The notes below the pieces were generated by a model that was given only the letters and a program-made list of their open reading frames with translations, ran no database searches and had not been told where the DNA came from. Source: Tupaia tana (Eukaryota > Chordata > Mammalia > Scandentia > Tupaiidae). Taken from it: 64,000 bases of DNA. How positions within the stretch are numbered: the first letter of the stretch is position 1; each line of letters starts with the position of its first letter. Shown here in pieces: positions 8,128 to 56,104 of the stretch. The position numbers and the translations under genes were made by a program. The stretch spans positions 72,822,041 to 72,886,040 of the forward strand of contig JAKSZU010000009.1 in assembly GCA_026018925.1 (NCBI GenBank), given 5' to 3'.

Positions 8128-8141
8128 ATATTTTAATTGAG
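8128..8141. repeat. Target-site duplication, 5' copy (giant LINE-1)
   Basis: ATATTTTAATTGAG occurs exactly here and at 55032-55045. The context to the left is CATT then AAAAATATTTTAATTGAG, which fits the LINE-1 endonuclease target TT|AAAA at 8123/8124. The full duplication is then 18 bp, with four extra bases (TATA) in the 3' copy at 55028-55033. Confidence 0.88.
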
Positions 8142-8638
8142 AGGCAATAGCGTGTCCTGCAAGCCTCTGGCCAGCAAGGGATACTGAGGGAGGGTCACCT
8201 CTGACCCCCACCCCACTTCCAGACCCCCAGGCCCCAGACTCCACCTTCTAGACTTTCCTGGACTGCCAGCAGGCAATAGCGTGTCCTGCAAGCCTCTGGT
8301 AAGCAAGGGATACTGAGGGAGGGTCACCTCTGACCCCCACACCACTTCTAGACCCCCAGGCCCCACACTCCACCTTCTAGACTTCCCTGGACTGCCAGCA
8401 GGCAATAGCGAGTCCTGCAAGCCTCTGGCCAGCAAGGGATACTGAGGGAGGGTCACCTCTGACCCCCACCCCACTTCCAGACCCCCAGGCCCCAGACTCC
8501 AACTTCTAGACTTTCCTGGACTGCCAGCAGGCAATAGCGTGTCCTGCAAGCCTCTGGCCAGCAAGGGATACTGAGGGAGGGTCACCTCTGACCCTCACCC
8601 CACTTCCAGACATCCAGGCCCCAGACTCCACCTTCTAG
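8142..8638 (+). other. Four leading units, three of them lacking the GT-AG block
   Basis: The first unit (8142-8251) is 5'-truncated by 19 bases. Units two (8252-8380) and three (8381-8509) are exactly 129 bp. Unit four (8510-8638) is followed by the first retained GT-AG block. At the three junctions 8251/8252, 8380/8381 and 8509/8510, CTTCTAG is joined straight to ACTT(T/C)CCTGG. In all later units a ~108-bp GTAGGT...CCAG block sits at that exact point. This is the expected product of RNA splicing before reverse transcription. Confidence 0.85.
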
Positions 8639-8747
8639 GTAGGTAGCTAGGATCTCCTTGAGACGTTTTGTTCTTTTTTTTTCTTTCTCTTTTCTCTTGA
8701 CCCCCCTGCATTCCCTTGTTAACACCTAGCCCTCCTTCTCCCCCCAG
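8639..8747 (+). other. First retained intron-like block (exemplar)
   Basis: 109 bp. The donor is CTAG|GTAGGT at 8638/8639. The acceptor is TTCTCCCCCCAG|ACTTTCC at 8747/8748, preceded by a long polypyrimidine stretch. A branch-point-like TTAAC (in CTTGTTAACACC) lies about 27 nt before the AG. The same parts recur in nearly every unit. Donor variants such as CTAGGGAGGT (for example near 14845 and 46244) and CTAGGTAAGT (near 47664) occur. Splice use is inferred from the three units that lack the block. Confidence 0.75.
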
Positions 8748-11700
8748 ACTTTCCTGGACTGCCAGCAGGCAATAGCCTGTCCTGCAAGCCTCTGGCCAGC
8801 AAGGGATACTGAGGGAGGGTCACCTCTGACCCCCACCCCACTTCCATACCCCCAGGCCCCAGACTCCACCTTCTAGGTAGGTAGCCAGGATCTCCTTGAG
8901 ACGTTTTGTTTTTTTTTTTTTCTTTCTCTTTTCTCATGACCCCCCCCCCTGCATTCCCTTGTTAACACCTAGCCCTCCTTCTCCCTCCAGACTTTCCTGG
9001 ACTGCCAGCAGGCAACAGCGTGTCCTGCAAGACTCTGGCCAGCAAGGGATACTGAGGGAGGGTCAACTCTAACCCCCACCCCACTTCCAGACCCAAAGGC
9101 CACAGACTCCACCTTCTAGGTAGGTAGCCAGGATATCCTTGAGACGTTTTGTTCTTTTTTTTTCTTTCTATTTTCTCTTGACCCCCCTGCATTCCCTTGT
9201 TATCACCTAGCCCTCCTTCTCACCCCAGACTTTCCTGGACTGCCAGCAGGCAATAGCGTGTCCTGCAAGCCTCTGGCCAGCAAGGGATACTGAGGGAGGG
9301 TCACCTCTGACCCCGACCCCACTTCCAGACCCCCAGGCCCCAGACTCCACATTCTAGGTAGGTAGCCAGGATCTCCTTGAGACGTTTTGTTTTTTTTTTT
9401 TTCTTTCTCTTTTCTCTTGACCCCCCTGCATTCCCTTGTTAACACCTAGCCCTCCTTCTCCCCCAAGACTTTCCTGGACTGCCAGCAGGCTATAGCATGT
9501 CCTGCAAGCCTCTGGCCAGCAAGGGATACTGAGGGAGGGTCACCTCTGACCCCCACCCCACTTCCAGACCCCCAGGCCCCAGACTCCACCTTCTAGGTAG
9601 GTAGCCAGGATCTCCTTGAGACGTTTTTTTTTTTTTTTTTTCTTTCTCTTTTCTCTTGACCCCCCTGCATTCCCTTGTTAACACCTAGCCCTCCTTCTCC
9701 CCCCAGACTTTCCTGGACTGCCAGCAGGCAATAGCGTGTCCTGCAAGCCTCTGGCCAGCAAGGGATACTGAGGGAGGGTCACCTCTGACCCCCACCCCAC
9801 TTCCAGACCGCCAGGCCCCAGACTCCACCTTCTAGGTAGGTAGCCAGGATCTCCTTGAGAAGTTTTGTTTTTTTTTTTTTCTTTCTCTTTTCTACTGACC
9901 CCCCCTGCATTCCCATGTTAACACCTAGCCCTCCTTCTCCCTCCAGACTTTCCTGGACTGCCAGCAGGCAACAGCGTGTCCTGCAAGACTCTGGCCAGCA
10001 AGGGATACTGAGGGAGGGTCACCTCTGACCCCCACCCCACTTCCAGACCCCCAGGCCCCAGACTCCACCTTCTAGGTAGGTAGCCAGGATATCCTTGAGA
10101 CGTTTTGTTCTTTTTTTTTCTTTCTCTTTTCTCTTGACCCCCCTGCATTTCCTTGTGAACACCTAGCCCTCCTTCTCCCCCAAGACTTTCCTGGACTGCC
10201 AGCAGGCAATAGCGTGTCCTGCAAGGCTCTGGCAAGCAAGGGATACTGAGGGAGGGTCACCTCTGACCCCCACCCCACTTCCAGAACACCAGGCCCCAGA
10301 CCCCACCTTCTAGGTAGGTAGCCAGGATCTCCTTGAGACGTTTTTTTTTTTTTTTTTTTCTTTCTCTTTTCTCTTGACCCCCCTGCATTCCCTTGATAAC
10401 ACCAAGCCCTCCTTTTCCCCCCAGACTTTCCTGGACTGCCAGCAGGCAATAGCGTGTCCTGCAAGCCTCTGGCCAGCAAGGCATACTGAGGGAGGGTCAC
10501 CTCTGACCCCCCACCCCACTTCCAGACCCCCAGGCCCCAGACTCCACCTTCTAGGTAGGTAGCCAGGATCACCTTGAGACTTTTTTTTTTTTTCTTTCTC
10601 TTTTCTCTTGACCCCCCTGTATTCCCTTGTTAACACCTACCCCTCCTTCTCCCCCCAGAATTTCCTGGACTGCCAGCAGGCAATAGCGTGTCCTGCAAGC
10701 CTCTGGCCAGCAAGGGATACTGAGGGAGGGTCACCTCTGGCCCCCACCCCACTTCCAGACCCCCAGGCCCCAGACTCCACCTTCTAGGTAGGTAGCCAGG
10801 ATCTCCTTGAGACGTTTTGTTGTTTCTTTTTTCTTTCTCTTTCTCTTGACCCCACCTGCATTCCCTTGTTAACACCTAGCCCTCCTTCTCCCCCCAGAAT
10901 TTCCTGGACTGCCAGCAGGCAATGGCGGTTCCTGCAAGCCTCTGGCCAGCAAGGGATACTGAGGGAGGGTCACCTCTGACCCCCACCCCACTTCCAGACC
11001 CCCAGGCCCCAGACTCCACCTTCTAGGTAGGTAGCCAGGATCTCCTTGAGACGTTTTTTTTTTTTTTTTTTCTTTCTCTTTTCTCTTGACCCCCCTGCAT
11101 TCCCTTGTTAACACCTAACCCTCCTTCTCCCCCCAGAATTTCCTGGACTGCCAGCAGGCAATAGCGTGTCCTGCAAGCCTCTGGCCAGCAAGGGATACTG
11201 AGGGAGGGTCACCTCTGACCCCCACCCCACTTCCATACCCCCAGGCCCCAGACTCCAACTTCTAGGTAGGTAGCCAGGATCTCCTTGAGACATTTTTTTT
11301 TTTTTTTCTTTCTCTTTTCTCTTGACCCCCCTGCATTCCCTTGTTAACACCTAGCCCTCCTTCTCCCCCCAGACTTTCCTGGAAGGCCAGCAGGCAATAG
11401 CGTGTCCTGCAAGCCTCTGGCCAGCAAGGGATACTGAGGGAGTGTCACCTCTGACCCCCACCCCACTTCCAGACCCCCAGGCCCCAGACTCCACCTTCTA
11501 GGTAGGTAGCCAGGATCTCCTTGAGACGTTTTGTTGTTTCTTTTTTCTTTCTCTTTCTCTTGACCCCCCCTGCATTCCCTTGTTAACACCTAGCCCTCCT
11601 TCTCCCCCCAGATTTTCCTGGACTGCCAGCAGGCAATAGTGGTTCCTGCAAGCCTCTGGCCAGCAAGGGATACTGAGGGAGGGTCACCTCTGACCCCCAC

Positions 11701-14700
11701 CCCACTTCCAGACCCCCAGGCCCCAGACTCCACCTTCTAGGTAGGTAGCCAGGATCTCCTTGAGACTTTTTATTTTTTTTTTTCTTTCTCTTTTCTATTG
11801 ACCCCCCTGCATTCCCTTGTTAACACCTAGCCCTCCTTCTCCCCCCAGACTTTCCTGGACTGCCAGCAGGCAATAGCGTGTCCTGCAAGACTCTGGCCAG
11901 CAAGGGATACTGAGGGAGGGTCACCTCTGACCCCCACCCCACTTCCAGACCCCCAGGCCACAGACTGCAACTTCTAGGTAGGTAGCCAGGATCTCCTTGA
12001 GACATTTTGTTTTTTTTTTTTCTTTCTCTTTTCTCTTGACCCCCCTGCATTCCCTTGTTAACACCTAGCCCTCCTTCTCCCCCCAGACTTTCCTGGAAGG
12101 CCAGCAGGCAATAGCGTGTCCTGCAAGCCTCTGGCCAGCAAGGGATACTGAGGGAGGGTCACCTCTGACCCCCACCCCACTTGCAGACCCCCAGGCCCCA
12201 GACTCCACCTTCTAGGTAGGTAGCCAGGATATCCTTGAGACGTTTTGTTCTTTTTTTTTCTTTCTATTTTCTCTTTACCCCCCTGCATTCCCTTGTTATC
12301 ACCTAGCCCTCCTTCTCCCCCCAGACTTTCCTGGACTGCCAGCAGGCAATAGCGTGTCCTGCAAGACTCTGGCCAGCAAGGGATAGTGTGGGAGGGTCAC
12401 CTCTGACCCCCACCCCACTTCCAGACCCCCAGGCCCCAGACTCCACCTTCTAGGTAGGTAGCCAGGATCTCCTTGAGACGTTTTGTTCTTTTTTTGTCTT
12501 TCTCTTTTCTCTTGACCCCCTGCATTCCCTTGTTAACACCTAGCCCTCCTTCTCCCTGCAGACTTTCCTGGACTGCCAGCAGGCTATAGCGTGTCCTGCA
12601 AGCCTCTGGCCAGCAAGGGATACTGAGGGAGGGTCACCTCTCACCCCCACCCCCACTTCCAGACCCCCAGGCCCCAGACTCCACCTTCTAGGTAGGTAGC
12701 CAGGATCTCCTTGAGACGTTTTGTTTTTTTTTTTTCTTTCTCTTTTCTCTTGACCCCCCTGCATTCCCTTGTTAACACCTAGCCCTCCTTCTCCCCCCAG
12801 ACTTTCCTGGACTGCCAGCAGGCAATAGCGTGTCCTGCAAGCCTCTGGCCAGCAAGGGATACTGAGGGAGGGTCACCTCTGACCCCCACCCCACTTCGAG
12901 ACCGCCAGGCCCCAGACTCCACATTCTAGGTAGGTAGCCAGGATCTCCTTGAGAAGTTTTGTTTTTTTTTTTTCTTTCTCTTTTCTACTGACCCCCCCCT
13001 GCATTCCCATGTTAACACCTAGCCCTCCTTCTCCCTCCAGACTTTCCTGGACTCCCAGCAGGCAACAGCGTGTCCTGCAAGACTCTGGCCAGCAAGGGAT
13101 ACTGCGGGAGGGTCACCTCTAACCCCCCACCCCACTTCCAGACCCCCAGGCCAGAGACTCCACCTTCTAGGTAGGTAGCCAGGATATCCTTGAGACGTTT
13201 TGTTCTTTTTTTTTCTTTCTCTTTTCTCTTGACCCCCCTGCATTCCCTTGTTAACACCTAGCCCTCCTTCTCCCCCCAGACTTTCCTGGACTGCCAGCAG
13301 GCAATAGCCTGTCCTGCAAGCCTCTGGCCAGCAAGGGATACTGAGGGAGGGACACCTCTGGCCCCCACCCCACTTCCAGAACCCCAGGCCCCAGACTCCA
13401 CCTTCAAGGTAGGTAGCCAGTATCTCCTTGAGACGTTTTGTTGTTTCTTTTTTCTTTCTCTTTCTCTTGACCCCCCCTACATTCCCTTGTTAACACATAG
13501 CCCTCCTTCTCCCCCCAGACTTTCCTGGACTGCCAGCAGGCAATAGCGGTTCCTGCAAGCCTCTGGCCAGCAAGGGATACTGCGGGAGGGTCACCTCTGA
13601 CCCCCACCCCCACTTCCAAACCCCCAGGCCCCAGACTCCACCTTCTAGGTAGGTAGCCAGGATCTCCTTGAGACGTTTTTTTTTTTTTTTTTTTTCTTTC
13701 TCTTTTCTCTTGACCCCCCTGCATTCCCTTGTTAACACCTAGCCCCTCCTTCTCCCCCCAGAATTTCCTGGACTGCCAGCAGGCAATAGCGTGTCCTGCA
13801 AGACTCTGGCCAGCAAGGGATACTGAGGGAGGGTCACCTCTGACCCCCACCCCACTTCCAGACCCCCAGGCCGCAGACTCCAACTTTTAGGTAGGTAGCC
13901 AGGATCTCCTTGAGACATTTTTTTTTTTTTTTTTCTTTCTCTTTTCTCTTGACCCCCCTGCATTCCCTTGTTAACACCTAGCCCTCCTTCTCCCCCCAGA
14001 CTTTCCTGGACTGCCAGCAGGCAATAGCGTGTCCTGCAAGCATCTGGCCAGCAAGGGATACTGAGGGAGGGTCACCTCTGACCCCCACCCCACTTCCAGA
14101 CCCCCAGGCCCCAGACTCCACCTTCTAGGTAGGTAGCCAGGATCTCCTTGAGACGTTTTGTTGTTTCTTTTTTCTTTCTCTTTCTCTTGACCCCCCCCTG
14201 CATTCCCTTGTTAACACCTAGCCCTCCTTCTCCCCCCCAGATTTTCCTGGACTGCCAGCAGGCAATAGCGGTTCCTGCAAGCCTCTGGCCAGCAAGGGAT
14301 ACTGAGGGAGGGTCACCTCTGACCCCCACCCCACTTCCAGACCCCCAGGCCCCAGACTTCACCTTCTAGGTAGGTAGCCAGGATCTCCTTGAGACGTTTT
14401 GTTTTTTTTTTTTCTTTCTCTTTTCTCTTGACCCCCCTGCATTCCCTTGTTAACACCTAGCCCTCCTTCTCCCCCCAGACTTTCCTGGACTGCCAGCAGG
14501 CAATAGCGTGTCCTGCAAGCCTCTGGCAAGCAAGGGATACTGAGGGAGAGTCACCTCTGACCCCCACCCCACTGCCAGACCCCCAGGCCCCAGACTCCAA
14601 CTTCTAGGTAGGTAGCCAGGATCTCCTAGAGACATTTTGTTTTTTTTTTTTTCTTTCTCTTTTCTCTTGACCCCCCTGCATTCCCTTGTTAACACCTAGC

Positions 14701-16217
14701 CCTCCTTCTCCCCCCAGAATTTCCTGGACTGCCAGCAGGCAATAGCGTGTCCTGCAAGCCTCTGGCCAGCAAGGGATACTGAGGGAGGGTCACCTCTGAA
14801 CCCCACCCCACTTCCAGACCCCCAGGCCCCAGACTCCACCTTCTAGGGAGGTAGCCAGGATCTCCTTGAGACTTTTTTTTTTTTCTTTCTTTCTCTTTCC
14901 TCCTGACCCCCCTGCATTCCCTTGTTAACACCTAGCCCTCCTTCTCCCCCCCAGACTTTCCTGGACTGCCAGCAGGCAATAGCGTGTCCTGCAAGCCTCT
15001 GGCCAGCAAGGGATACTGAGGGAGGGTCACCTCTGACCCCCACCCCACTTCCAGACCCCCAGGCCCCAGACTCCATCTTCTAGGGAGGTAGCCAGGATCT
15101 CCTTGAGACGTTTTGTTTTTTTTTTGTTTTTTCTTTCTCTTTTCTCTTGACCCCCCTGCATTCCCTTGTTAACACCTTGCCCCTCCTTCTCCCCCCAGGC
15201 TTTACTGGACTGCCAGACGCAATAGCGTGTCCTGCAAGCCTCTGGCCAGCAAGGGATAATGAGGGAGGGTCACCACTGACCCCCACCCCACTTCCAGACA
15301 CCCAGGCCCCAGACTCCACCTTCTAGGTAGGTAGCCAGGATCTCCTTGAGACGTTTTGTTCTTTTTTTTTCTTTCTCTTTTCTCTTGACCCCCCTGCATT
15401 CCCTTGTTAACACCTAGCCCTCCTTCTCCCCCCAGACTTTCCTGGACTGCCAGCAGGCAATAGCGTGTCCTGCAAGCCTCTGGCCAGCAAGGGATACTGA
15501 GGGAGGGTCACCTCTGACCCCCACGCACTTCCAGACCCCCAGGCCCCAGACTCCACCTTCTAGGTAGGTAGCCAGAATCTCCTTGAGACGTTTTGTTTTT
15601 TTTTTTCTTTCTCTTTTCTCCTGACCCCCGCCCTGCATTCCCTTGTTAACACCTAGCCCTCCTTCTTCCTCCAGACTTTCCTGGACTGCCAGCAGGCAAC
15701 AGCGTGTCCTGCAAGACTCTGGCCAGCAAGGGATACTGAGGGAGTGTCACCTCTAACCCCCACCCGACTTCCAGACCCCCAGGCCCCAGACTCCACCTTC
15801 TAGGTAGGTAGCCAGGATATCCTTGAGACGTTTTGTTCTTTTTTTTCTTTCTATTTTCTCTTGACCCCCCTGCATTCCCTTGTTAACACCTAGCCCTCCT
15901 TCTCCCCCCAGACTTTCCTGGACTGCCAGCAGCCAATAGCGTGTCCTGCAAGCCTCTGGCCAGCAAGGGATACTGAGGGAGGGTCACCTCTGACCCCCAC
16001 CCCACTTCCAAACCCCCAGGCCCCCAGACTCCACCTTCTAGGTAGGTAGCCAGGATCTCCTTGAGACGTTTTGTTTTTTTTTTTTTTTCTTTATCTTTTC
16101 TCTTGACCCCGCTGCATTCCCTTGTTAACACCTAGCGCTCCTTCTCCCCCCAGACTTTCCTGGACTGCCAGCAGGCAAGAGCATGTCCTCCAAGCCTCTG
16201 GCAAGCAAGGGATACTG

Positions 16218-16317
16218 NNNNNNNNNNNNNNNNNNNNNNNNNNNNNNNNNNNNNNNNNNNNNNNNNNNNNNNNNNNNNNNNNNNNNNNNNNNNNNNNNNN
16301 NNNNNNNNNNNNNNNNN
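16218..16317. other. Assembly gap (100 N)
   Basis: Exactly 100 unknown bases inside the array, the usual placeholder for a gap of unknown size. The array length is therefore not known. The sequence restarting at 16318 closely matches 18460 onward. Confidence 0.99.
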
Positions 16318-17100
16318 TTTTTTTTTTTTTTTTTTTTTTTCTTTCTCTTTTCTCTTGACCCCCCTGCATTCCCGTGTTAACACCTAGCCCTCCTTCTCCC
16401 CCCAGACTTTCCTGGACTGCCAGCAGGCAATAGCGTGTCCAGCAAGCCTCTGGCCAGAAAGGGATAGTGAGGGAGGGTCACCTCTGACCCCCACACCACT
16501 TCCAGACCCCCAGGCCCCAGACTCCACCTTCTAGGTAGGTAGCCAGGATCTCCTTGAGACGTTTTGTTCCTATTTTTTCTTTCTCTTTTCTCTTGACCCC
16601 CCTGCATTCCCTTGTTAACACCTAGCCCTCCTTCTCCCCCCAGACTTTCCTGGACTGCCAGCAGGCAATAGCGTGTCCTGCAAGCCTCTGGCCAGCAAGG
16701 GATACTGAGGGAGGGTCACCTCTGACCCCCACTCCACTTCAAGACCCCCAGGCCCCAGACTCCAACTTCTAGGTAGGTAGCCAGGATCTCCTTGAGACGT
16801 TTTTTTTTTTTTTTTCTTTCTCTTTTCTCTTGACCCCCCCTGCATTCCCTTGTTAACACCTAGCCCTCCTTCTCTCCCCAGACATTCCAGGACGGCCAGC
16901 AGGCAATAGCGTGTCCTGCAAGCCTCTGGCCAGCAAGGGATACTGAGGGAGTGTCTCCTCTGACCCCCACCCCACTTCCAGTCCCCCAGGCCCCAGACTC
17001 CACCTTCTAGGTAGGTTGCCAGGATCTCCTTGAGACTTTTTTTTTTTTTTTCTTTCTCTTTTCTCTTGACCCCCCTGCATTCCCTTGTTAACACCTAGCC
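16318..17100 (+). repeat. Multi-monomer block repeated ~2.14 kb downstream (18460-19240)
   Basis: At least three consecutive units recur in the same order with an offset of about 2,142 bp (9 units). These include the distinctive 'GTTCCTATTTTTTC' unit at about 16563 and 18710, and the unit beginning GACATTCCAGGACGGCC at about 16880 and 19023. Because the first copy starts right at the N gap, unresolved contig overlap is an alternative to a real duplication. Confidence 0.75.
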
Positions 17101-20100
17101 CTCCTTCTGCCCCCAGACTTTCCTGGACTGCCAGCAGGCAACAGCGTGTCCTGCAAGCCTCTGGCCAGCAAGGGATACTGAGGGAGGGTCACCTCTGACC
17201 CCCACCCCACTTCCAGAGCCCCAGGACCCAGACTCCACATTCTAGGTAGGTAGCCAGGATCTCCTTGAGACGTTTTGTTCTTTTATTTTCTTTCTCTTTT
17301 CTCTTGACCCCCCTGCATTCCCTTGTTAACACCTAGCCCTCCTTCTCCCCCAGACTTTCCTGGATTGCCAGCAGGCAATAGCGTGTCCTGCAAGCCTCTG
17401 TCCAGGTAGGGATACTGAGGGAGGGTCACCTCTGACCCCCACCCAACTTCCAGACCCCCAGGCCCCAGACTCCACCTTCTAGGTAGGTAGCCAGGATCTC
17501 CTTGAGACGTTTTTTTTTTTTTTTTTTCTTTCTCTTTTCTCTTGACCCCCCTGCATTCCCTTGCTAACACCTAGCCCTCCTTCTCCCCCCAGACTTTCCT
17601 GGACTGCCAGCAGGCAATATCGTGCCCTGAAAGCCTCTGGCCAGCAAGGGATACTGAGGGAGGGTCACCTCTGACCCCCACCCCACTTCCAGACCCCCAG
17701 GCCCCAGACTCCACCTTCTAGGTAGGTAGCAATGATCTCCTTGAGACGTTTTTTTTTTTTTTTCTTTCTCTTTTATCTTGACCCCCCTGCATTCCCTTGT
17801 TAACACCTAGCCCTCCTTCTGCCCCCAGACTTTCCTGCACTGCCAGCAGGCAACAGCGTGTCCTGCAAGCCTCTGGCCAGCAAGGGATACTGAGGGAGGG
17901 TCACCTCTGACCCCCACCCCACTTCCAGACCCCCAGGCCCCAGACTCCATCTTCTAGGTAGGTAGCCAGGATCTCCTTGAGATGTTTTTTTTTTTTTTTT
18001 CTTTCTCTTTTCTCTTGACCCCCCTTGCATTCGCTTGCTAACACCAAGCCCTCCTTCTCCCCCCAGACTTTCCTGGACTGCCAGCAGGCAATAGCGTGTC
18101 CTGCAAGCCTCTGGACAGGTAGGGATACTGAGGGAGGGTCACCTCTGAACCCCACCCCACTTCCAGACCCCCAGGCCCCAGACTCCACCTTCTAGGTAGG
18201 CAGCCAGGATCTCCTTGAGACTTTTTTTTTTTTTTTTCTTTCTATTTTCTCTTGACACCCCTGCATTCCCTTGTTAGCACTTAGCCCTCCTTCTCCCCCC
18301 AGACTTTCCTGGACTGCCAGCAGGCAATAGCGTGTCCTGTAAGCCTTTGGCCAGCAAGGGATACTGAGGGAGGGTCACTTCTGACCCCCACCCCACTTCC
18401 AGACCCCCAGGCCCCAGACACCACCTTCTAGGTAGGAAGCCAGGATCTCCTTGAGACGTTTTTTTTTTTTTTTTTTTTTTTTCTTTCTCTTTTCTCTTGA
18501 CCCCCCTGCATTCCCGTGTTAACACCTAGCCCTCCTTCTCCCCCCAGACTTTCCTGGACTGCCAGCAGGCAATAGCGTGTCCAGCAAGCCTCTGGCCAGA
18601 AAGGGATAGTGAGGGAGGGTCACCTCTGACCCCCACACCACTTCCAGACCCCCAGGCCCCAGACTCCACCTTCTAGGTAGGTAGCCAGGATCTCCTTGAG
18701 ACGTTTTGTTCCTATTTTTTCTTTCTCTTTTCTCTTGACCCCCCTGCATTCCCTTGTTAACACCTAGCCCTCCTTCTCCCCCCAGACTTTCCTGGACTGC
18801 CAGCAGGCAATAGCGTGTCCTGCAAGCCTCTGGCCAGCAAGGGATACTGAGGGAGGGTCACCTCTGACCCCCACTCCACTTCAAGACCCCCAGGCCCCCA
18901 GACTCCAACTTCTAGGTAGGTAGCCAGGATCTCCTTGAGACGTTTTTTTTTTTTTTTTCTTTCTCTTTTCTCTTGACCCCCCTGCATTCCCTTGTTAACA
19001 CCTAGCCCTCCTTCTCTCCCCAGACATTCCAGGACGGCCAGCAGGCAATAGCGTGTCCTGCAAGCCTCTGGCCAGCAAGGGATACTGAGGGAGTGTCTCC
19101 TCTGACCCCCACCCCACTTCCAGTCCCCCAGGCCCCAGACTCCACCTTCTAGGTAGGTTGCCAGGATCTCCTTGAGACTTTTTTTTTTTTTTCTTTCTCT
19201 TTTCTCTTGACCCCCCTGCATTCCCTTGTTAACACCTAGCCCTCCTTCTGCCCCCAGACTTTCCTGGACTGCCAGCAGGCAACAGCGTGTCCTGCAAGCC
19301 TCTGGCCAGCAAGGGATACTGAGGGAGGGTCACCTCTGACCCCCACCCCACTTCCAGACCCCCAGGCCCCAGACTCCACCTTCTAGGTAGGTAGCCATGA
19401 TCTCCTTGAGACGTTTTGTTCTTTTTTTTTCTTTCTCATTTCTCTTGACCCCCCTGCATTCCCTTGTTAACACCTAGCCCTCCTTCTCCCCCCAGACTTT
19501 CCTGGACTGCCAGCAGGCAATAGCGTGTCCTGCAAGCCTCTGGCCAGGTAGGGATACTGAGGGAGGGTCACCTCTGACCCCCACCCCACTTCCAGACTCC
19601 CAGTCCCCAGACTCCACCTTCTAGGTAGGCAGCCAGGATCTCCTTGAGACTTTTTTTTTTTTCTTTCTATTTTCTCTTGACACCTCTGCATTCCCTTGTT
19701 AGCACTTAGCCCTCCTTCTCCCCCCAGACTTTCCTGGACTGCCAGCAGGCAATAGCGTGTCCTGTAAGCCTTTGGCCAGCAAGGGATACTGAGGGAGGGG
19801 TCACTTCTGACCCCCACCCCACTTCCAGACCCCCAGGCCCCAGACACCACCTTCTAGGTAGGTAGCCAGGATCTCCTTGAGACGTTTTTTTTTTTTTTTT
19901 TTTTTTTTCTTTCTCTTTTCTCTTGACCCCCCTGCATTCCCGTGTTAACACCTAGCCCTCCTTCTCCCCCCAGACTTTCCTGGACTGCCAGCAGGCAATA
20001 GCGTGTCCAGCAAGCCTCTGGCCAGAAAGGGATACTGAGGGATGGTCACCTCTGACCCCCACACCACTTCCAGACCCCCCAGGCCCCAGACTCCACCTTC

Positions 20101-20422
20101 TAGGTAGGTAGCCAGGATCTCATTGAGACGTTTTTTTCCTATTTTTTCTTTCTCTTTTCTCTTGACCCCCCTGCATTCACTTGTTAACACCTAGCCCTCC
20201 TTCTCCCCCCAGACTTTCCTGGACTGCCAGCAGGCAATAGCGTGTCCTGCAAGCCTCTGGCCAGCAAGGGATACTGAGGGAGGGTCACCTCTGACCCCCA
20301 CTCCACTTCAAGACCCCCAGGCCCCAGACTCCAACTTCTACGTAGGTAGCCAGGATCTCCTTGAGACGTTTTTTTTTTTTTTTTTTCTTTCTCTTTTCTC
20401 TTGACCCCCCTGCATTCCCTTG

Positions 20423-28400: not shown

Positions 28401-29379
28401 GACTCCACCTTCTAGGTAGGTAGCCAGTATCTCCTTGAGACGTTTTTTTATTTTTTTCTTTCTCTTTTCTCTTGACCCCCCTGCATTCCCTTGTTAACAC
28501 CTAGCCCTCCTTCTCCCCCCAGACTTTCCTGGACTGCCAGCAGGCAATAGCGTATCCTGCAAGCCTCTGGCCAGCAAGGGATACTGAGGGAGGGTCACCT
28601 CTGACCCCCACCCCACTTCCAGACCCCCAGGCCCCAGACTCCACCTTCTAGGTAGGTAGCCAGGATCTCCTTGAGACGTTTTGTTTTTTTTTTTTTTTCT
28701 TTATCTTTTCTCTTGACCCCCCTGCATTCCCTTGTTAACACCTAGCCCTCCTTCTCCCCCCAGACTTTCCTGGACTGCCAGCAGGCAATAGTGTGTCCTG
28801 CAAGCCTCAGGCCAGCAAGGGATACTGAGGGAGGGTCACCTCTGACCCCCACCCCACTTCTAGACCCCCAGGCCCCAGTCTCCACCATCTAGGTAGGTAG
28901 CCAGGATCTCCTTGAGACGTTTTTTTTTTTTTTTTTCTTTCTCTATTCTCATGACCCCCCTGCATTCCCTTGTTATCACCTAGCCCTCCTTCTCCCCCCA
29001 GACTTTCCTGGACTGCCAGCAGGAAATAGCGTGTCCTGCAAGCCTCTGGTCAGCAAGGGATACTGAGGGAGGGTCACCTCTGACCCCCACCCCACTTCCA
29101 GACCCCCAGGCCCCAGACACCACCTTCTAGGTAGGTAGCCAGGATCTCCTTGAGACGTTTTTTTTTTTTTTTTCTTTCTTTCTCTTTTCTCTTGAGCCCC
29201 CTGCATTCCCATGTTAACACCTAGCCCTCCTTCTCCCCCCAGACTTTCCTGGACTGCCAGCAGGCAATAGCGTGTCCAGCAAGCCTCTGGCCAGAAAGGG
29301 ATACTGAGGGAGGGTCACCTCTGACCCCCACACCACTTCCAGACCCCCAGGCCCCAGACTCCACCTTCTAGGTAGGTAG

Positions 29380-41300: not shown

Positions 41301-41745
41301 TATTTTTTTCTTTCTCTTTTCTCTTGACCCCCCTGCATTCCCTTGTTAACACCTAGCCCTCCTTCTCCCCCCAGACTTTCCTGGACTGCCAGCAGGCAAT
41401 AGCGTGTCCTGCAAGCCTCTGGCCAGCAAGGGATACTGAGGGAGGGTGACCTCTGACCCCCACCCCACTTCCAGACCCCCAGGCCCCAGACTCCACCTTC
41501 TAGGTAGGTAGCCAGGATCTCCTTGAGACGTTTTGTTTTTTTTTTTTTTTCTTTATCTTTTCTCTTGACCCCCCTGCATTCCCTTGTTAACATCTAGCCC
41601 TCCTTCTCCCCCCCAGAATTTCCTGGAATGCCAGCAGGCCAGAGCGTGTCCTGCAAGCCTCTGGCCAGCAAGGGATACTGAGGGAGGGTCACCTGAGACC
41701 CCCACCCCACTTCCAGACCCCCAGGCCCCAGACTCCACCTTCTAG
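29380..41745 (+). repeat. 26-unit (~6.18 kb) tandem higher-order duplication
   Basis: The order of distinctive units from about 29.4 to 35.56 kb repeats from about 35.56 to 41.75 kb with a constant offset of 6,180-6,189 bp. Matched marker pairs begin at about 29452/35635, 30159/36343, 31595/37777, 32705/38887, 33736/39923 and 34921/41110. The joint falls in a chimeric unit (35397-35627). A smaller 8-unit repeat (about 28.26-29.7 against 30.16-31.6 kb, offset ~1.9 kb) is nested at its left edge. Confidence 0.82.
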
Positions 41746-41821
41746 GTAGGTAGCCAGGATCTCCTTGAGCCATTTTTTTTTTTTTCTTTCTCTTTTCTCT
41801 TGACCCCCCTGCATTCCCTTG

Positions 41822-44800: not shown

Positions 44801-46080
44801 CCCCAGGGCCCAGACTCCACCTTCTAGGTAGGTAGCAATGATCTCCTTGAGACGTTTTTTTTTTTTTTTTCTTTCTCTTTTATCTTGACCCCCCTGCATT
44901 CCCTTGTTAACACCTAGCCCTCCTTCTGCCCCCAGACTTTCCTGCACTGCCAGCAGGCAACAGCGTGTCCTGCAAGCCTCTGGCCAGCAAGGGATACTGA
45001 GGGAGGGTCACCTCTGACCCCCACCCCACTTCCAGACCCCCAGGCCCCAGACTCCACCTTCTAGGTAGGTAGCCAGGATCTCCTTGAGACGTTTTGTTCT
45101 TTTTTTTTCTTTCTCTGTTCTCTTGACCCCCCTGCATTCCCTTGTTAACACCTAGCCCTCCTTCTCCCCCAGAGTTTCCTGGACTGCCAGCAGGCAATAG
45201 CGTGTCCTGCAAGCCTCTGGCCAGGTAGGGATACTGAGGGAGGGTCACCTCTGACCCCCACCCCACTTCCAGATCCCCAGGCCCCAGACTCCACCTTCTA
45301 GGTTGGTAGCCAGGATCTCCTTGAGACTTTTTTTTTTTTTTCTTCATATTTTCTCTTGACCCCCCTGCATTCCCTTGTTAACACCTAGCCCTCCTTCTTC
45401 CCCCAGACTTTCCTGGACTGCCAGCAGGCAATAGCCTGTCCTGCAAGCCTCTGGCCAGCCAGGGATACTGAGGGAGGGTCACCTCTGACACCCACCCCAC
45501 TTCCAGACCCCCAGGCCCCAGACTCCACCTTCTAGGTAGGTAGCCAGTATCTCCTTGAGACGTTTTTTTTATTTTTTTCTTTCTCTTTTCTCTTGACCCC
45601 CCTGCATTCCCTTGTTAACACCTAGCCCTCCTTCTCCCCCAGACTTTCCTGGACTGCCAGCAGGCAATAGCGTGTCCTGCAAGCCTCTGGCCAGCAAGGG
45701 ATACTGAGGGAGGGTGACCTCTGACCCCCACCCCACTTCCAGACCCCAGGCCCCAGACTCCACCTTCTAGGTAGGTAGCCAGGATCTCCTTGAGACGTTT
45801 TGTTTTTTTTTTTTTTCTTTATCTTTTCTCTTGACCCCCCTGCATTCCCTTGTTAACATCTAGCCCTCCTTCTCCCCCCCAGAATTTCCTGGAATGCCAG
45901 CAGGCCAGAGCGTGTCCTGCAAGCCTCTGGCCAGCAAGGGATACTGAGGGAGGGTCACCTGAGACCCCCACCCACTTCCAGACCCCCAGGCCCCAGACTC
46001 CACCTTCTAGGTAGGTAGCCAGGATCTCCTTGAGCCATTTTTTTTTTTTTTTCTTTCTCTTTTCTCTTGACCCCCCTGCA
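41822..46080 (+). repeat. 11-unit higher-order duplication inside the array
   Basis: Units starting at about 41822 recur from about 44431 with an offset of ~2,609 bp (11 units), for example 42298/44907, and the TTTTTTTATTTTTTTC unit at 42953/45563. The second copy shows small extra changes. Confidence 0.75.
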
Positions 46081-49000
46081 TTCCCTTGTTAACACCTAGC
46101 CCTCCTTCTTCCCCCAGAATTTCCTGGACTGCCAGCAGGCAATAGCGTGTCCTGCAATCCTCTGGCCAGGTAGGGATACTGAGGGAGGGTCACCTCTGAC
46201 CCCCACCCCACTTCCAGACCCCCAGACCCCAGACTCCACCTTCTAGGGAGGTAGCCAGGATCTCCTTGAGACTTTTTTTTTTTTCTTTCACTTTTCTCTT
46301 GACCCCCCTGCATTCCCTTGTTAACACCTAGCCCTCCTTCGCCCCCCAGACTTTCCTGGACTGCCAGCAGGCAATAGCGTGTCCTGCAAGCCTCTGGCCA
46401 GCAAGGGATACTGAGGGAGGGTCTCCTCTGACCCCCACCCCACTTCCAGTCCCCCAGGCCCCAGACTCCACCTTCTAGGTAGGTTGCCAGGATCTCCTTG
46501 AGACTTTTTTTTTTTTCTTTCTCTTTTCTCTTGACCCCCCTGCATTCCCTTGTTAACACCTAGCCCTCCTTCTTCCCCCAGACTTTCCTGGACTGCCAGC
46601 AGGCAACAGCGTGTCCTGCAAGCCTCTGGCCAGCAAGGGATACTGAGGGAGGGTGACCTCTGACCCCCACCCCACTTCCAGACCCCCAGGCCCCAGACTC
46701 CACCTTCTAGGTAGGTAGCCAGGATCTCCTTGAGACGTTTTGTTCTTTTTTTTTCTTTCTCTTTTCTCTTGACCCCCCTGCATTCCCTTGTTAACACCTA
46801 GCCCTCCTTCTCCCCCCAGACTTTCCTGGATTGCCAGCAGGCAATAGCGTGTCCTGCAAGCCTCTGTCCAGGTAGGGATACTGAGGGAAGGTCACCTCTG
46901 ACCCCCACCCCACTTCCAGACCCCCAGGCCCCAGACTCCACCTTCTAGGTAGGTAGCCAGGATCTCCTTGAGACGTTTTTTTTTTTTTTTTTTTTTTTTC
47001 TTTCTCTTTTCTCTTGACCCCCCTGCATTCCCTTGCTAACACCTAGCCCTCCTTCTCCCCCCAGACTTTCCTGGACTGCCAGCAGGCAATAGCGTGTCCT
47101 GAAAGCCTCTGGCCAGCAAGGGATACTGAGGGAGGGTCACCTCTGACCCCCACCCCACTTCCAGACCTCCAGGCCCCAGACTCCACCTTCTAGGTAGGTA
47201 GCAATGATCTCCTTGAGACGTTTTTTTTCTTTCTTTCTCTTTTCTCTTGACCCCCCTGCATTCTCTTGTTAACACCTAGCCCTCCTTCTGCCCCCAGACT
47301 TTCCTGCACTGCCAGCAGGCAACAGCGTGTCCTGCAAGCCTCTGGCCAGGTAGGGATACTGAGGGAGGGTCACCTCTGACCCCCACCCCACTTCCAGACC
47401 CCCAGGCCCCAGACTCCACCTTCTAGGTAGGTAGCCAGGATCTCCTTGAGACGTTTTTTTTTTTTTTTTCTTCATCTTTTCTCTTGAACCCCCTGCATTC
47501 CCTTGTTAACACCTAGCCCTCCTTTTCCCCCCAGACTTTCCTGGACTGCCAGCAGGCAATAGCGTGTCCTGCAAGCCTCTGGCCAGCAAGGGATACTGAG
47601 GGAGGGTCACCTCTGACCCCCACCCCACTTCCAGACCCCCAGGCCCCAGACTCCACCTTCTAGGTAAGTAGCCAGGATCTCCTTGAGACTTTTTTTTTTT
47701 CTTTCTCTTTTCTCTTGACCCCCCTGCATTCCCTTTTTAACACCTAGCCCTCCTTCTCCCCCAGACTTTCCTGGACTGCCAGCAGGCAATAGCGTGTCCT
47801 GCAAGCCTCTGGCCAGCAAGGGATACTGAGGGAGGGTCACCTCTGACCCCCACCCCACTTCCAAACCCCCAGGCCCCAGACTCCACCTTCTAGGTAGGTA
47901 GCCAGGATCTCCTTGAGACGTTTTTTGTTTTTTTTTTTTTTTTCTTTCTCTTTTCTCTTGACCCCCCTGCATTCCCTTGTTAACACCTAGCCCTCCTTCT
48001 CCCCCCAGACTTTCCTGGACTGCCAGCAGGCAATAGCGTGTCCTGCAAGCCTCTGGCCAGGTAGGGATACTGAGGGAGGGTCACCTCTGACCCCCACCCC
48101 ACTTCCAGACCCCCAGGCCCCAGACTCGACCTTCTAGGTAGGTAGCCAGGATCTCCTTGAGACGTTTTTTTTTTTTTTTTTTCTTCATCTTTTCTCTTGA
48201 CCCCCCTCCATTCCCTTGTTAACACCTAGCCCTCCTTCTTCCCCCAGACTTTCCTGGACTGCCAGCAGGCAATAGCGTGTCCTGCAAGCCTCTGGCCAGC
48301 CAGGAATACTGAGGGAGGGTCACCTCTGACCCCCACCCCACTTCCAGAACCCCACGCCCCAGACTCCACCTTTTAGGTAGGTAGCCAGTATCTCCTTGAG
48401 ACTTTTTTTTTTTCTTTCTCTTTTCTCTTGACCCCCCTGCATTCCCTTGTTAACACCTAGCCCTCCTTCTCCCCCCAGACTTTCCTGGACTGCCAGCAGG
48501 CAATAGCGTGTCCTGCAAGCCTCTGGCCAGCAAGGGATACTGAGGGAGAGTTACCTCTGACCCCCACCCCCTTCCAGACCCCCAGGCCCCACACTCCACC
48601 TTCTAGGTAGGTAGCCAGGATCTCCTTGAGATGTTTTTTTTTTATCTTTCTTTCTCTTTTCTCTTGATCCCCCTACATTCCCTTGTTAACACCTAGCCCT
48701 CCTTCTCCCCCCAGACTTTCCTGGACTTCCAGCAGGCAATAGCGTGTCCTGCAAGCCTCTGGCCAGGTAGGGATACTGAGGGAGGGTCACCTCTGACCCC
48801 CACCCCACTTCCAGACCCCCAGGCCCCAGACTCCACCTTCTAGGTAGGTAGCCAGGATCTCCTTGAGACGTTTTTTTTTTTTTTTTTTTCTTCATCTTTT
48901 CTCTTGACCCCCCTGCATTCCCTTGTTAACACCTAGCCCTCCTTTTCCCCCCAGACTTTCCTGGACTGCCAGCAGGCAATAGCGTGTCCTGCAAGCCTCT

Positions 49001-49545
49001 GGCCAGCAAGGGATACTAAGGGAGGGTCACCTCTGACCCCCACCCCACTTCCAGACCCCCAGGCCCCAGACTCCACCTTCTAGGTAGGTAGCCAGGATCT
49101 CCTTGAGACTTTTTTTTTCTTTCTCTTTTCTCTTGACCCCCCTGCATTCCCTTTTTAACACCTAGCCCTCCTTCTCCCCCCAGACTTTCCTGGACTGCCA
49201 GCAGGCAATAGCGTGTCCTGCAAGCCTCTGGCCAGCAAGGGATACTGAGGGAGGGTCACCTCTGACCCCCACCCCACTTCCAAACCCCCAGGCCCCAGAC
49301 TCCACCTTCTAGGTAGGTAGCCAGGATCTCCTTGAGACGTTTTTTTTTTTTTTTTTTTTTTTTTTTTCTTTCTCTTTTCTCTTGACCCCCCTGCATTCCC
49401 TTGTTAACACCTAGCCCTCCTTCTCCCCCCAGACTTTCCTGGACTGCCAGCAGGCAATAGCGTGTCCTGCAAGCCTCTGGCCAGGTAGGGATACTGAGGG
49501 AGGGTCACCTCTGACCCCCACCCCACTTCCAGACCCCCAGGCCCC

Positions 49546-49895: not shown

Positions 49896-50855
49896 ATGGC
49901 TAAAGGTAGAAAAAGAGCCTCAGGTCTGAATAAACAAGAAAATATGTCTCCAACAAAGGAAAATGCCCCTCCATGTCTCGTAAATATGGAGGACGTTACC
50001 AAAATGACAGACACAGAATTCCGAACATTCATGGTGACCAAATTCTGTGAATTGGAAAAAAAAAGAGACAACGAACTACAGGAAATTAGGAAGTCCTTCC
50101 AGGATATGAAAGAAGAAATGGATACTCTGAGAAAGAATCAGGTGGAACTATTAGAGATAAAGTCTATAATACAAGAAATCAAAAACTCTCTGGAAAGTAT
50201 TAAGAGCCGATTAGACCATGCTGAAGATCGAATCTCTGATGTAGAAGATAAAACCTCTGATCTAGAAAAAAACTACAAAAAGATCGAGAAAATAACTAAA
50301 AATCATGAGGATAATATACGAGAAATACTAGACTCTATTAGACGCCCAAACATCAGAATAATTGGCATCCCAGAAGGTGAAGAAACTAATAGCGGAATGG
50401 AAAATCTATTCCATGACATCTTGGAAGAAAATTTCCCAAGCCTAGAGAGGCACCGAACCATCCGGACCCAAGAAATACAAAGGACCCCAAATAGAATCAA
50501 CCCCAGAAGATCTTCCCCAAGGCACATCTTAGCCAGGCTGTCTAACGTCACAGAAAAAGACATGATACTAAAACTGGCAAGAGAGAAACGAGAAATAACT
50601 TACAAAGGCCATCCCATAAGACTAACACCAGACCTCTCATCAGAAACAATGCAAGCAAAAAAAGAATGGGAAGACATACTGAAAGTGTTAAGAGAGAAAC
50701 AATTTCAGCCAAGACTATTATACCCTGCAAGATTATCCTTCATTTGGGAAAAAAAGATTAAAATCTTCTCAGACAAACAAAACCTGAAAGAATTTGCCAA
50801 CACCAGACCAGCTCTTCAAGAAATCCTGAAGAAAGTACTGTTCCAGGAAAACTAA
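49896..50855 (+). CDS. LINE-1 ORF1 protein (RNA-binding chaperone), intact
   Basis: 319 codons, uninterrupted; human ORF1p has 338 residues. The basic N-terminus (MAKGRKRASG) is followed by a coiled coil of about residues 45-148 with regular leucine/isoleucine heptads. The RNA-recognition domain begins at RPNIRIIGIPEGEE (residues 150-163), and the C-terminal domain includes LAREKREITYKGHPIRL and 'KEKQFQPR/LLYPARLSF'-type sequence. It ends in FQEN. In the family it trimerises, coats LINE-1 RNA in cis and is needed for retrotransposition. The ATG at 49896 is the first in frame after the unique 5'UTR. ORF2 follows after a 44-bp spacer, as in other mammalian LINE-1s. Confidence 0.93.
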   Translation: MAKGRKRASGLNKQENMSPTKENAPPCLVNMEDVTKMTDTEFRTFMVTKFCELEKKRDNELQEIRKSFQDMKEEMDTLRKNQVELLEIKSIIQEIKNSLESIKSRLDHAEDRISDVEDKTSDLEKNYKKIEKITKNHEDNIREILDSIRRPNIRIIGIPEGEETNSGMENLFHDILEENFPSLERHRTIRTQEIQRTPNRINPRRSSPRHILARLSNVTEKDMILKLAREKREITYKGHPIRLTPDLSSETMQAKKEWEDILKVLREKQFQPRLLYPARLSFIWEKKIKIFSDKQNLKEFANTRPALQEILKKVLFQEN

Positions 50856-50899
50856 AGACCCAACAGCCAGAAACAAAGAAATAACAGGCAACTAAGACA

Positions 50900-53800: not shown

Positions 53801-54757
53801 ATCAAGGATCTAAATCTAAGACCTCAAACTATAAAGCTGCTCCTGGAGAATGCTGGGGAAACTCTGGGAGACATTCGTGTAGGGAAAGACTTCCTAAAGA
53901 AGACCCTCAAAGCAGAGTCCATCGTCCACAAAATAGACAAGTGGGATTACATCAGACTAAGAAGTTTCTGCATGGCCAAAGACACAGTAGTTAGTGTGAA
54001 TCGACAGCCCTCAGAATGGGAAAATATTTTTGTAAATGTTGCATCAGATAAGGGACTGATAACCAGAATACACAAGGAACTAAAAAAGGTGTTTGGAAAA
54101 AAGATGAGTAACCCTATTAAAAGATGGGAGAAGGAGATGAAGAAAACACTCTCTAAAGATGACATACGAATGGCCAAAAGGCATATGAAAAAATGTTCAA
54201 CCTCCCTCATCGTAAGGGAAATGCAGATAAAAGCAACAATGAGGTACCACCTAACCCCAGTCAGATTGTCTAATATTAAAAAAACAAAAAATGATAAGTG
54301 TTGGCGGGGGTGTGGTGAAAGGGGAACTCTTTTACACTGCTGGTGGGAATGTAGATTGGTCCAACCACTGTGGAGAATAATTTGGAGATTCCTCAAAAAT
54401 CTACAGATAGATCTGCCATATGATCCAGAGATCCCACTCCTCGGTATCTACCCAAAGGACAGAACAATCCTTCATTGGAAAAGTGCTTGCACATCGATGT
54501 TTATTGCGGCACTATTCACAATTGCTAAGTCATGGAACCAACCCAGATGCCCCCGTATGGAGGAATGGATTGAAAAACTGTGGCACATATACTCTATGGA
54601 ATACTACTCAGCCATAAAAACCAACAGAGCCCTGGCTTTTGACAGAAAGTGGAAGAATATGGAAGATGTACTGCTGAGTGAGGCAAGCCAGGCTATGAAG
54701 GAGAGACATTGTATGTCCCCACTTAACATATACCGTTTGTCTGCATTCTATGTCTGA
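50900..54757 (+). pseudogene. LINE-1 ORF2 (endonuclease/reverse transcriptase), one premature stop
   Basis: One frame runs from ATG 50900 to the stop at 54755-54757 (1,285 codons; human ORF2p has 1,275). It is broken only by TAA at 51362-51364 (codon 155). The context [17 protein letters not shown] corresponds to a conserved serine codon in LINE-1, so a single TCA-to-TAA change explains it. The endonuclease keeps NVNGLN, the catalytic glutamate (QETHL, residue 47), GDLNT and SDHDG. The reverse transcriptase keeps the SPGPDGF motif, [13 protein letters not shown] and the catalytic FADD (53009-53020, residues 704-707). The C-terminal cysteine-rich segment CWRGCG...HCWWEC is present at about 54299-54354. 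In the family this protein nicks target DNA and primes reverse transcription there. The stop lies within the endonuclease domain, so this copy should now make no full ORF2p unless the stop is read through. Confidence 0.93.
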
Positions 54758-55031
54758 AACTGATTGACTAACAGTTGAACAAACACAAGAGATAGGTGTG
54801 AATGTCAGATGAGGTGTATGTGGAGGAGTGGGGCCCAACGAAAGACATTTGGAGAAGGGATAGAGAGGTAGAGCATTGACGGGATGGGGAGATGTGGTGT
54901 TATCTGTTGAAGATATTTCGATCAACGGGTCTGGGGAGAAATGTTCACATATCGAAATGGTCTCATTGTAAGCCAAACAATATGATTGAAAGTATATACA
55001 AAAATAAATAAAGTAATTAATAAAAAAATAT
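54758..55031 (+). other. LINE-1 3'UTR and A-rich tail
   Basis: A G-rich polypurine stretch (GGAGGAGTGGGGCCC, about 54822-54836, and GGGATGGGGAGATG near 54890) is followed by GTAAGCCAAACAATATG. It ends with AATAAATAAAG, overlapping AATAAA signals, and an A-run at 55022-55028. Short antisense copies of this same end occur at 7063-7179 and 62830-63222. Confidence 0.88.
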
Positions 55032-55045
55032 ATATTTTAATTGAG
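55032..55045. repeat. Target-site duplication, 3' copy (giant LINE-1)
   Basis: ATATTTTAATTGAG, an exact match to 8128-8141, immediately after the A-rich tail and a short TA expansion. Confidence 0.88.
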
Positions 55046-56092: not shown

Positions 56093-56104
56093 AAAAACAT
56101 GTTC

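What the first reader, a model, noticed from the sequence alone, without database searches (positions are those of the whole stretch)
8128..55045. A ~41-kb tandem array and the adjacent LINE-1 are one ~46.9-kb retrotransposon insertion
ATATTTTAATTGAG is found immediately left of the first array unit (8128-8141) and immediately right of the LINE-1 A-rich tail (55032-55045), and the left site reads TT|AAAA as LINE-1 endonuclease prefers. The array ends at 49545 and runs straight into the LINE-1 5'UTR. So the 'satellite' is the LINE-1 promoter monomer array, grown to ~175 units. Monomeric LINE-1 promoters are known in mouse with far fewer units. I know of no described single LINE insertion of this size.
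Basis: partly seen in the sequence, partly recalled or inferred. Interest (0 to 1): 0.95.

Follow-up and report, generated by a model that had tools for sequence, protein, structure and literature searches.

The report
Jumping gene with overgrown promoter array
A LINE-1 jumping gene in a mammal genome carries its own promoter repeat about 176 times over, some 41 kilobases, and related copies suggest that this repeat is partly spliced like an intron and has grown into satellite-like arrays elsewhere in the same genome.

Summary
In detail: ATATTTTAATTGAG occurs in the window only at 8128 and 55032, bracketing ~176 monomers, a tether, ORF1, ORF2 and an A-rich tail. The array is this LINE-1 family's promoter: of 39 other tether places listed I read 29, and all 29 have the same monomer upstream, 22 with 2-9 units, seven with 16 to 128.

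"One 46.9-kb insertion" is half shown. Array and LINE-1 are one element at one site, but TSDs cannot tell whether ~175 units passed through RNA or most grew later. Recent block duplications, near-uniform units in other copies and a private array-tether junction favour growth; array divergence far above the LINE-1 body's (2.42% v 0.38%) favours inheritance. A 100-N gap leaves the length open.

New: the first three junctions lack a 109-nt GT-AG segment, as do some in 24 of 29 other copies; the exact short junction occurs 6,929 times genome-wide, as splicing before reverse transcription would give. Giant arrays recur: 128 units with a LINE-1, ~105 kb without one at the end read, a 253-kb contig. 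Mouse precedent: 50 monomers.

The parts
8128..8141 (+). left target-site duplication ATATTTTAATTGAG (possibly 18 bp from 8124)
   Evidence: exact repeat of 55032-55045, only two copies in window; 188 places genome-wide
8142..8507 (+). 5' cap: units of the short (129-bp) type, first one cut off at unit position 22; 109-nt GT-AG segment absent at junctions 8246, 8375, 8504
8508..49545 (+). long-type monomers (~238 bp, ~172.5 copies) with nested block duplications
   Evidence: TRF, unit distances and block runs
16218..16317 (.). 100 N: assembly gap inside the array
30664..41614 (+). largest recent block pair: units 96-115 (from 30664) and 122-141 (from 36847), 20 units each, offset 26 units, 0.33% different with T-runs collapsed
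49431..49545 (+). last, partial monomer, joined directly to the tether; CG-rich linker of other copies missing; junction found once in the genome
49546..49895 (+). non-monomeric 5'UTR (tether), with a near-perfect splice donor AAG|GTAAGT at 49675 (matrix recalled)
   Evidence: tether search: 40 matches scored of 2113 candidates, window included
49896..50855 (+). LINE-1 ORF1, 319 aa, open
   Evidence: PF02994 and PF17490
50900..54757 (+). LINE-1 ORF2, 1285 codons, no frameshift seen, one in-frame stop at codon 155 (endonuclease part)
   Evidence: the part from 51434 matches human ORF2p 8uw3 over equal lengths (query 2-1094, chain 176-1268), no gap in the alignment as far as printed; PF03372 and PF00078 in the two pieces
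54758..55031 (+). 3'UTR and A-rich tail
   Evidence: sequence; same 3' end in 9 of 9 other copies whose 3' ends were fetched
55032..55045 (+). right target-site duplication

Best explanation
One LINE-1 element with an overgrown promoter. Shown: the ~238-bp monomer is the 5' unit of a young LINE-1 family in this mammal; array, tether, ORFs and tail lie between one pair of target-site duplications. Strongly suggested: each long unit is a 129-nt exon plus a 109-nt GT-AG intron, and RNA made from the outermost unit had its cap-nearest introns removed before reverse transcription, leaving short units at the 5' end and long units next to the tether. Inferred: a LINE-1 with three short units and a few long units inserted here (body divergence about 0.4%), and the long units then multiplied at the DNA level by repeated block duplication (unequal exchange or break-induced copying) to ~175 or more; this copying was also mutagenic, with many transversions. 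The same growth made other giant arrays of this monomer, one of them without a LINE-1 at the end that was read.
For: TSD. Same monomer upstream of the tether in 29 of 29 other copies read; 22 have 2-9 units in the stretch read, seven have 16 or more (L013 18, L014 at least 26, L016 at least 23, L022 28, L023 16, L030 128, L031 29). Monomers of six copies (L011, L013, L016, L025, L028, L038) equal the window's majority monomer with mostly 0-2 differences, one unit 4, last partial units left out; units within 23 copies differ by only 0.51%, so founder units were nearly uniform. Nested blocks: 20 units offset 26 at 0.33%, 9 units offset 12 at 0.54%; the 25 runs found lie at 0.22-0.88%, but runs were defined as units at most 3 differences apart. 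Edge units (first 4, last 6; a split chosen after seeing the data) nearer the founder than middle ones: L022 p=0.001, L031 p=0.0002, window 1.71% v 2.42%, p=0.025. Array-tether junction found once in the genome. At least one short unit in 24 of 29 other copies, last full unit long in 29 of 29. Exact short junction 6,929 times genome-wide, reversed-pattern control 0. Only three junctions here are short although the exact donor TTCTAG|GTAGGT occurs 142 times and the exact acceptor CCCCAG|ACTTTC 124 times in the array. Mouse precedent of 50 monomers, ascribed by its authors to unequal crossing-over (PMC6454616).
Against: Unit divergence (2.42%) is about six times the private divergence of the LINE-1 body (7 of 1838 = 0.38%, CI 0.15-0.78%); growth at the locus then needs a raised mutation rate in the array. 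L022 (28 units) has 1 private change in 1839 bp of body but 1.63% array divergence, which inheritance explains more simply. L030 shows no edge effect (p=0.24). In 4 of the 24 copies with short units (L013, L016, L017, L023) short and long units interleave, so 'short first' is not a strict rule. Differences between recent block pairs are not clearly transversion-rich (26:31 over seven overlapping pairs, one with misaligned T-runs). The private junction could have formed during the insertion itself. No RNA, no population data and no empty site were available; the empty-site pattern gave 0 matches in the genome.
Confidence: 0.6

Rival explanations
1. One-step giant insertion: the source LINE-1 already had a very long, diverse promoter array; a tens-of-kilobase RNA, spliced only at its first three introns, was reverse transcribed whole.
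For: TSD spans everything. Unit diversity (2.42%) exceeds the body's age (0.38%), so at one clock most diversity predates insertion; single-linkage clusters at <=4 and <=5 differences number 69 and 56, which would mean tens of founder units. Array singletons (103) lie within what the body's rate would give over ~37 kb (about 140, range 55-290; my arithmetic). L022 and L031 have young bodies, 16-17 bp TSDs and 28-29 diverse units. L030: 128 units plus LINE-1 interrupt an older LINE-1 at one point.
Against: Singletons have another spectrum (Ts:Tv 34:69) than body changes (96:62), p=1.5e-5, so they are not ordinary aging at the body's rate. Founder-like units sit at the edges in three of four long arrays tested, by a split chosen after seeing the data. 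No source or sibling array was found, but this was not tested: the variant-pattern search did not complete, and the DNA search did not list even the window's own exact copy.
Confidence: 0.25
2. The array length or its unit diversity is partly an assembly artefact: reads stacked wrongly or a consensus of poor quality in the array middle.
For: 100-N gap in the array and N runs in the L031 array and at C1197:111.89 Mb; clean edges and diverged middles in L022 and L031; substitution spectrum close to random (72:153, p=0.72 against one third).
Against: Substitutions dominate: 844 substitutions to 7 indels outside homopolymers in the window array (58 indels with homopolymers), unlike raw long-read error; variants carried by 6 or more units have the same spectrum (16:41) and travel as multi-site unit types through blocks. 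TSDs at both ends support the join across the gap.
Confidence: 0.1
3. A pre-existing satellite array into which, or beside which, a LINE-1 landed by chance (two events).
For: L1-free end of a ~105-kb array of the same monomer at C375; samples of two other large arrays (C383, C1197:94.34-94.37 Mb) show long units only, so they carry no sign of RNA passage.
Against: Monomer next to the tether in 29 of 29 other copies read; no monomer right of the LINE-1; no separate TSD at 49.5 kb (the scan printed no match of 6 or more); the large arrays sampled at C375 and C1197:111.9 Mb do contain the short unit type.
Confidence: 0.02

Closest known systems
Mouse L1Md promoters (A, Gf, Tf monomers plus tether)
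   Same: tandem ~200-bp monomers, then a non-monomeric tether, then ORF1; number varies between copies; long arrays occur: 28 monomers on chr2 (PMC2176070, passages) and 50 on chr3 (PMC6454616, passages and Discussion), the latter ascribed to unequal crossing-over
   Different: monomer not aligned to mouse monomers here; 128-176 units attached to a LINE-1; an intron-like half in each long unit; satellite-scale arrays in the same genome
SpIREs, spliced integrated retrotransposed elements (human L1)
   Same: spliced 5'UTR segment missing from the integrated copy (PMC5860796, abstract and outline)
   Different: here splicing would act repeatedly between tandem promoter units, is common (24 of 29 copies) and leaves the last full unit long in 29 of 29; no RNA evidence here
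Satellites born from transposable elements, e.g. PROsat of Phodopus roborovskii from LINE-1 (table entry in PMC6947457, passages)
   Same: part of a TE becomes a long tandem array, growth by unequal exchange
   Different: here many stages coexist in one genome: promoters of 2-9, 16-29, 128 and 176 units attached to a LINE-1, and arrays of 100 kb or more

Membership tests
LINE-1 retrotransposon | ORF1p with RBD-like and C-terminal domains | tested here: met
   PF02994 1.4e-28, PF17490 2.2e-24
LINE-1 retrotransposon | ORF2 with endonuclease and reverse transcriptase | tested here: met
   PF03372 9.1e-12 and PF00078 5.1e-47 in the two pieces; human ORF2p structures best match; one in-frame stop
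LINE-1 retrotransposon | TSD, endonuclease-type target, A-rich tail | tested here: met
   the target preference itself is recalled
Monomeric-promoter L1 (mouse type) | tandem monomers then tether then ORF1, varying in number between copies | tested here: met
   29 of 29 other copies read
Monomeric-promoter L1 (mouse type) | monomers have promoter activity | not testable with these tools
   position only; by eye 17 of 29 copies begin at (C/G)AGAC(C/T)TTCC
SpIRE | GT-AG segment missing, with splice signals in the unspliced form | tested here: met
   109 nt, best donor of the 7 GT sites scored (score 78, recalled matrix), branch-like TTAAC 25 nt before the 3' end, 80% pyrimidines in -28..-4; an AG repeated at both ends leaves 2 nt of the boundary open
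SpIRE | spliced RNA observed | not testable with these tools
   no RNA data
Satellite DNA | long tandem array with higher-order blocks | tested here: met
Satellite DNA | arrays independent of the LINE-1 | tested here: inconclusive
   C375 array: no tether in ~3.1 kb beyond its 3' end; C383: 5 of 5 samples array, stretch beyond 240.5 kb not read
Single-event 46.9-kb insertion | all units present in the inserted cDNA | tested here: inconclusive
   sibling search unanswered

The most novel reading that the evidence does not exclude
This LINE-1 family disperses ready-made satellite arrays: transcripts with tens of promoter units (about 12 kb in L022 and L031, ~36 kb in L030, up to ~47 kb here) are reverse transcribed whole, with splicing of the cap-nearest units as a built-in record of RNA passage, and each landing can seed a satellite.
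Probability: 0.25. Interest if true: 0.88.

Novelty: new variant of a known kind. Interest (0 to 1): 0.68.

Why it matters
It shows, within one genome, a graded series from an ordinary LINE-1 promoter to a satellite: promoters of a few units, of 16-29, of 128 and of 176 units still attached to a LINE-1, and arrays of 100 kb or more. The intron-like half of each long unit gives a natural mark: a unit without it has probably been through RNA, or descends from one that has, so retrotransposition and DNA-level growth can be told apart. That makes the birth of satellite DNA from a retrotransposon, and the maximum length of a LINE-1 insertion, directly testable.

Tried and rejected
Separate TSD for the LINE-1 at 49.5 kb: the scan of junction ends 49535-49559 against the 3' end printed no match of 6 nt or more. 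LINE-1 landing inside an older satellite: no monomer on its right side. Empirical TSD control: its random draws could overlap, so its 29 full-length matches in 20,000 are about what self-overlap gives; I use only the composition estimate and the genome count. Long-read error as the source of unit diversity: 844 substitutions against 7 indels outside homopolymers, so unlikely, not excluded. Equal clock for array and body: an ORF-decay estimate (<=1 stop, 0 frameshifts) makes 2.9% body divergence very unlikely (2.5e-6 or 2e-9, for two assumed indel ratios); direct private counts gave 0.38%, which depends on the 29 copies sampled. Source of L022 through its 3' transduction: the sequence occurs once elsewhere (C975:22100962), but no LINE-1 3' end was found in the 3-kb locus there, so its source array could not be read. 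DNA search for siblings with units 65-66: the window's own exact copy was not listed, so the result cannot exclude siblings. Recurrence of the same variants in L030 and the window: 56 shared against ~44 expected by chance. Self-BLAST of the array gave no usable rows; a first alignment timed out.

Transition:transversion controls, all of them: SINE copies 74:35 distinct, 35:25 outside CpG; LINE-1 fragments 116:78, 5:7 and 26:30, the last two against my reading; body changes 96:62; monomers of 23 other copies 43:24, among them only the first 1.5 kb of L013, L014, L016 and L023. When those four were read further they gave 19:25, so the contrast is not simply short-unit against long-unit arrays. 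Long arrays: window 69:155, L030 47:72 for 38 units and 69:121 for 127 units, L022 22:39 and 25:42, L031 23:28 and 25:29.

Rows dropped before counts: window units 35 (gap), 171/172 (one unit split by the cutter) and 176 (partial) in several counts; last partial units, units with N or outside 100-275 bp, and three copies (L012, L024, L026) left with fewer than two units. Ten of the 39 other tether places were not fetched. Species not identified: the closest of the 120 listed ORF1 hits (of 283) are 67-71% identical.


Full report
What is there. The window contains, on the + strand, a target-site duplication (8128-8141), about 176 tandem monomers (8142-49545), a 350-bp tether, ORF1 (49896-50855, open), ORF2 (50900-54757, no frameshift seen, one in-frame stop at codon 155), a 3'UTR with A-rich tail, and the second target-site duplication (55032-55045). 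The 14-mer occurs only at these two places in the window and at 188 places in the 2.95-Gb genome, against 102 for the reversed pattern; a chance match at the junction has a probability near 1e-6 by base composition. The left site TT|AAAA fits LINE-1 endonuclease (established knowledge, recalled). The array holds a 100-N gap at 16218, so its true length is not known; the matching TSDs at its two ends argue that the scaffold join is right.

The array is the promoter of this LINE-1 family. A genome search with the tether gave 40 matches, the window itself among them, from 2,113 candidates. I had loci for 29 of the 39 others. All 29 have the same monomer directly upstream. In the stretches read, 22 have 2-9 units and seven have 16 or more: L013 18, L014 at least 26, L016 at least 23, L022 28, L023 16, L030 128, L031 29. 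Of nine copies whose two ends were compared, six show 13-20 bp duplications from the left edge of the array to the 3' end (L010, L013, L022, L029, L031, L034; L022 and L031 after extra 3' sequence), one shows 9 bp (L017), one none (L011), and in L030 both flanks are parts of one older LINE-1 that overlap by 15 nt at an A-tract, so 128 units (30.9 kb) plus a LINE-1 sit at one point of it.

Units with and without an intron-like half. The long unit (~238 bp) is a 129-bp part plus a 109-bp part that begins GTAGGT and ends CCCCCCAG, with the best-scoring donor among the seven GT sites scored (donor matrix recalled), a branch-like TTAAC 25 nt before its end and 80% pyrimidines before the AG. In the window the first three junctions lack exactly this part (8246, 8375, 8504), while the exact donor string occurs 142 times and the exact acceptor string 124 times in the array. 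Among the 29 other copies, 24 have at least one short unit, the five without being L015, L024, L026, L030 and L035, and the last full unit is long in 29 of 29. In four of the 24 (L013, L016, L017, L023) short and long units interleave; in the others the short ones stand first, as far as read. The exact short junction occurs 6,929 times in the genome, the reversed control 0 times. The simplest reading is that introns near the cap are spliced out before reverse transcription, as in human SpIREs (PMC5860796, abstract and outline). By eye 17 of the 29 copies begin at (C/G)AGAC(C/T)TTCC, which suggests a start site at the same place; the window begins 21 nt further in. Splicing and start site are inferred; no RNA was seen.

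How the array became so long. For growth at the locus: nested block duplications, the largest 20 units at offset 26 with 0.33% difference, 25 runs in all at 0.22-0.88%, runs being defined by at most 3 differences per unit; older, more diverged blocks with offsets 11, 13 and 3 in the left part; other copies with nearly uniform units (0.51%, 106 units in 23 copies), several almost identical to the window's majority unit; founder-like edge units in L022, L031 and, weakly, the window, but not in L030, by a split chosen after seeing the data; and an array-tether junction found once in the genome, without the CG-rich linker of the 29 other copies read. For arrival as a long array: unit divergence of 2.42% against a body divergence of 0.38% (7 of 1838, CI 0.15-0.78%), and L022, with 1 private body change in 1839 bp but 1.63% unit divergence over a 28-unit array. 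These can be reconciled if the process that copies the array is also mutagenic. A hint is the spectrum: window array 69:155 transitions to transversions, L030 47:72, L022 22:39, L031 23:28, against 43:24 in the 23 other copies and 96:62 in LINE-1 bodies. Against a clean contrast: four arrays rich in short units gave 19:25 when read further, recent block pairs 26:31, and two old LINE-1 fragments 31:37. Variants shared by six or more window units are as transversion-rich (16:41) as singletons (34:69), and indels outside homopolymers are rare (7 against 844 substitutions), so plain long-read error is unlikely. Each unit also has a run of four C-tracts (positions 85-115), a possible quadruplex on the other strand; stalled forks and break-induced copying by error-prone polymerases would fit, but that is a guess.

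Wider context. The same monomer makes other very long arrays: L030 (128 units), C1197:94.34-94.37 Mb (array at both ends and in the one inner sample of 34 kb), C375:889-994 kb (about 105 kb, three of three inner samples array, no tether in ~3.1 kb beyond its 3' end), and C383, an unplaced 253-kb contig with array in five of five samples. Short units occur in the samples of C375 and of C1197:111.9 Mb, which points from LINE-1 to satellite rather than the reverse; the samples of C383 and C1197:94.3 Mb show long units only and are silent on this. So this locus is one member of a series, not a singular event.

Known relatives. Mouse L1 promoters are built of monomers and a tether, on average 3-4 in the youngest subfamilies, with seven of 5,765 loci above 10 in one survey (PMC9022269, passages). 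A 28-monomer promoter (PMC2176070, passages) and a 50-monomer one ascribed to unequal crossing-over (PMC6454616, passages and Discussion) are published; [quoted passage not shown] Origin of satellites from transposable elements is established, with a LINE-1 example in a hamster (PMC6947457, passages). In the listings of my paper searches (123 and 126 failed) and the passages read I saw no report of LINE-1 promoter arrays above 50 units or of spliced promoter monomers; the library lacks most subscription journals.

Verdict. Observation confirmed. Interpretation partly supported: one element, one site, promoter monomers, yes; one 46.9-kb reverse-transcription event, open and in my judgement less likely than growth at the locus. 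New variant of a known kind.

Noticed in passing
window 16218-16317: 100-N gap inside the array, beside a T-run; unit types left and right of it share few rarer variants (7 unit pairs with two or more in common).
   Followed up: partly
window 8508-49545; L030, L022, L031: Variants in long arrays are rich in transversions, close to random in the window, unlike LINE-1 bodies and the monomers of most other copies.
   Followed up: partly
L022 3' end (L043), C975:22100962-22101003 (L063): L022 carries a 3' transduction whose genomic origin shows no LINE-1 3' end within 3 kb in this assembly and is longer there, as if part was removed; possibly a source absent from this haplotype.
   Followed up: partly
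C383 (253,238 bp), C375:889353-994288, C122:405-448 and 517-521 kb, C87: Other large arrays of the same monomer; C122 and C87 hold many exact short junctions in the listed first places (not read further).
   Followed up: partly
L010-L038, last monomers: The last full unit before the tether kept its intron-like half in 29 of 29 copies; why it is spared is unknown.
   Followed up: no
L014 (C952:684377), L013: Arrays made almost wholly of short units (at least 26; 18), in L014 with the same private variant in each of the 10 full units examined: local homogenisation.
   Followed up: no
window 49675: Near-perfect splice donor AAG|GTAAGT in the tether (score 99, recalled matrix).
   Followed up: no
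window flanks, e.g. 4018-4308, 55823-56096: Many copies of a tRNA-like SINE (name and type by eye) with a long pyrimidine stretch, about 71-91% alike; species not identified.
   Followed up: no
P0001: A protein 67% identical to this ORF1 is filed under Streptomyces narbonensis on a 2.3-kb contig: probably mammalian contamination of that assembly.
   Followed up: no
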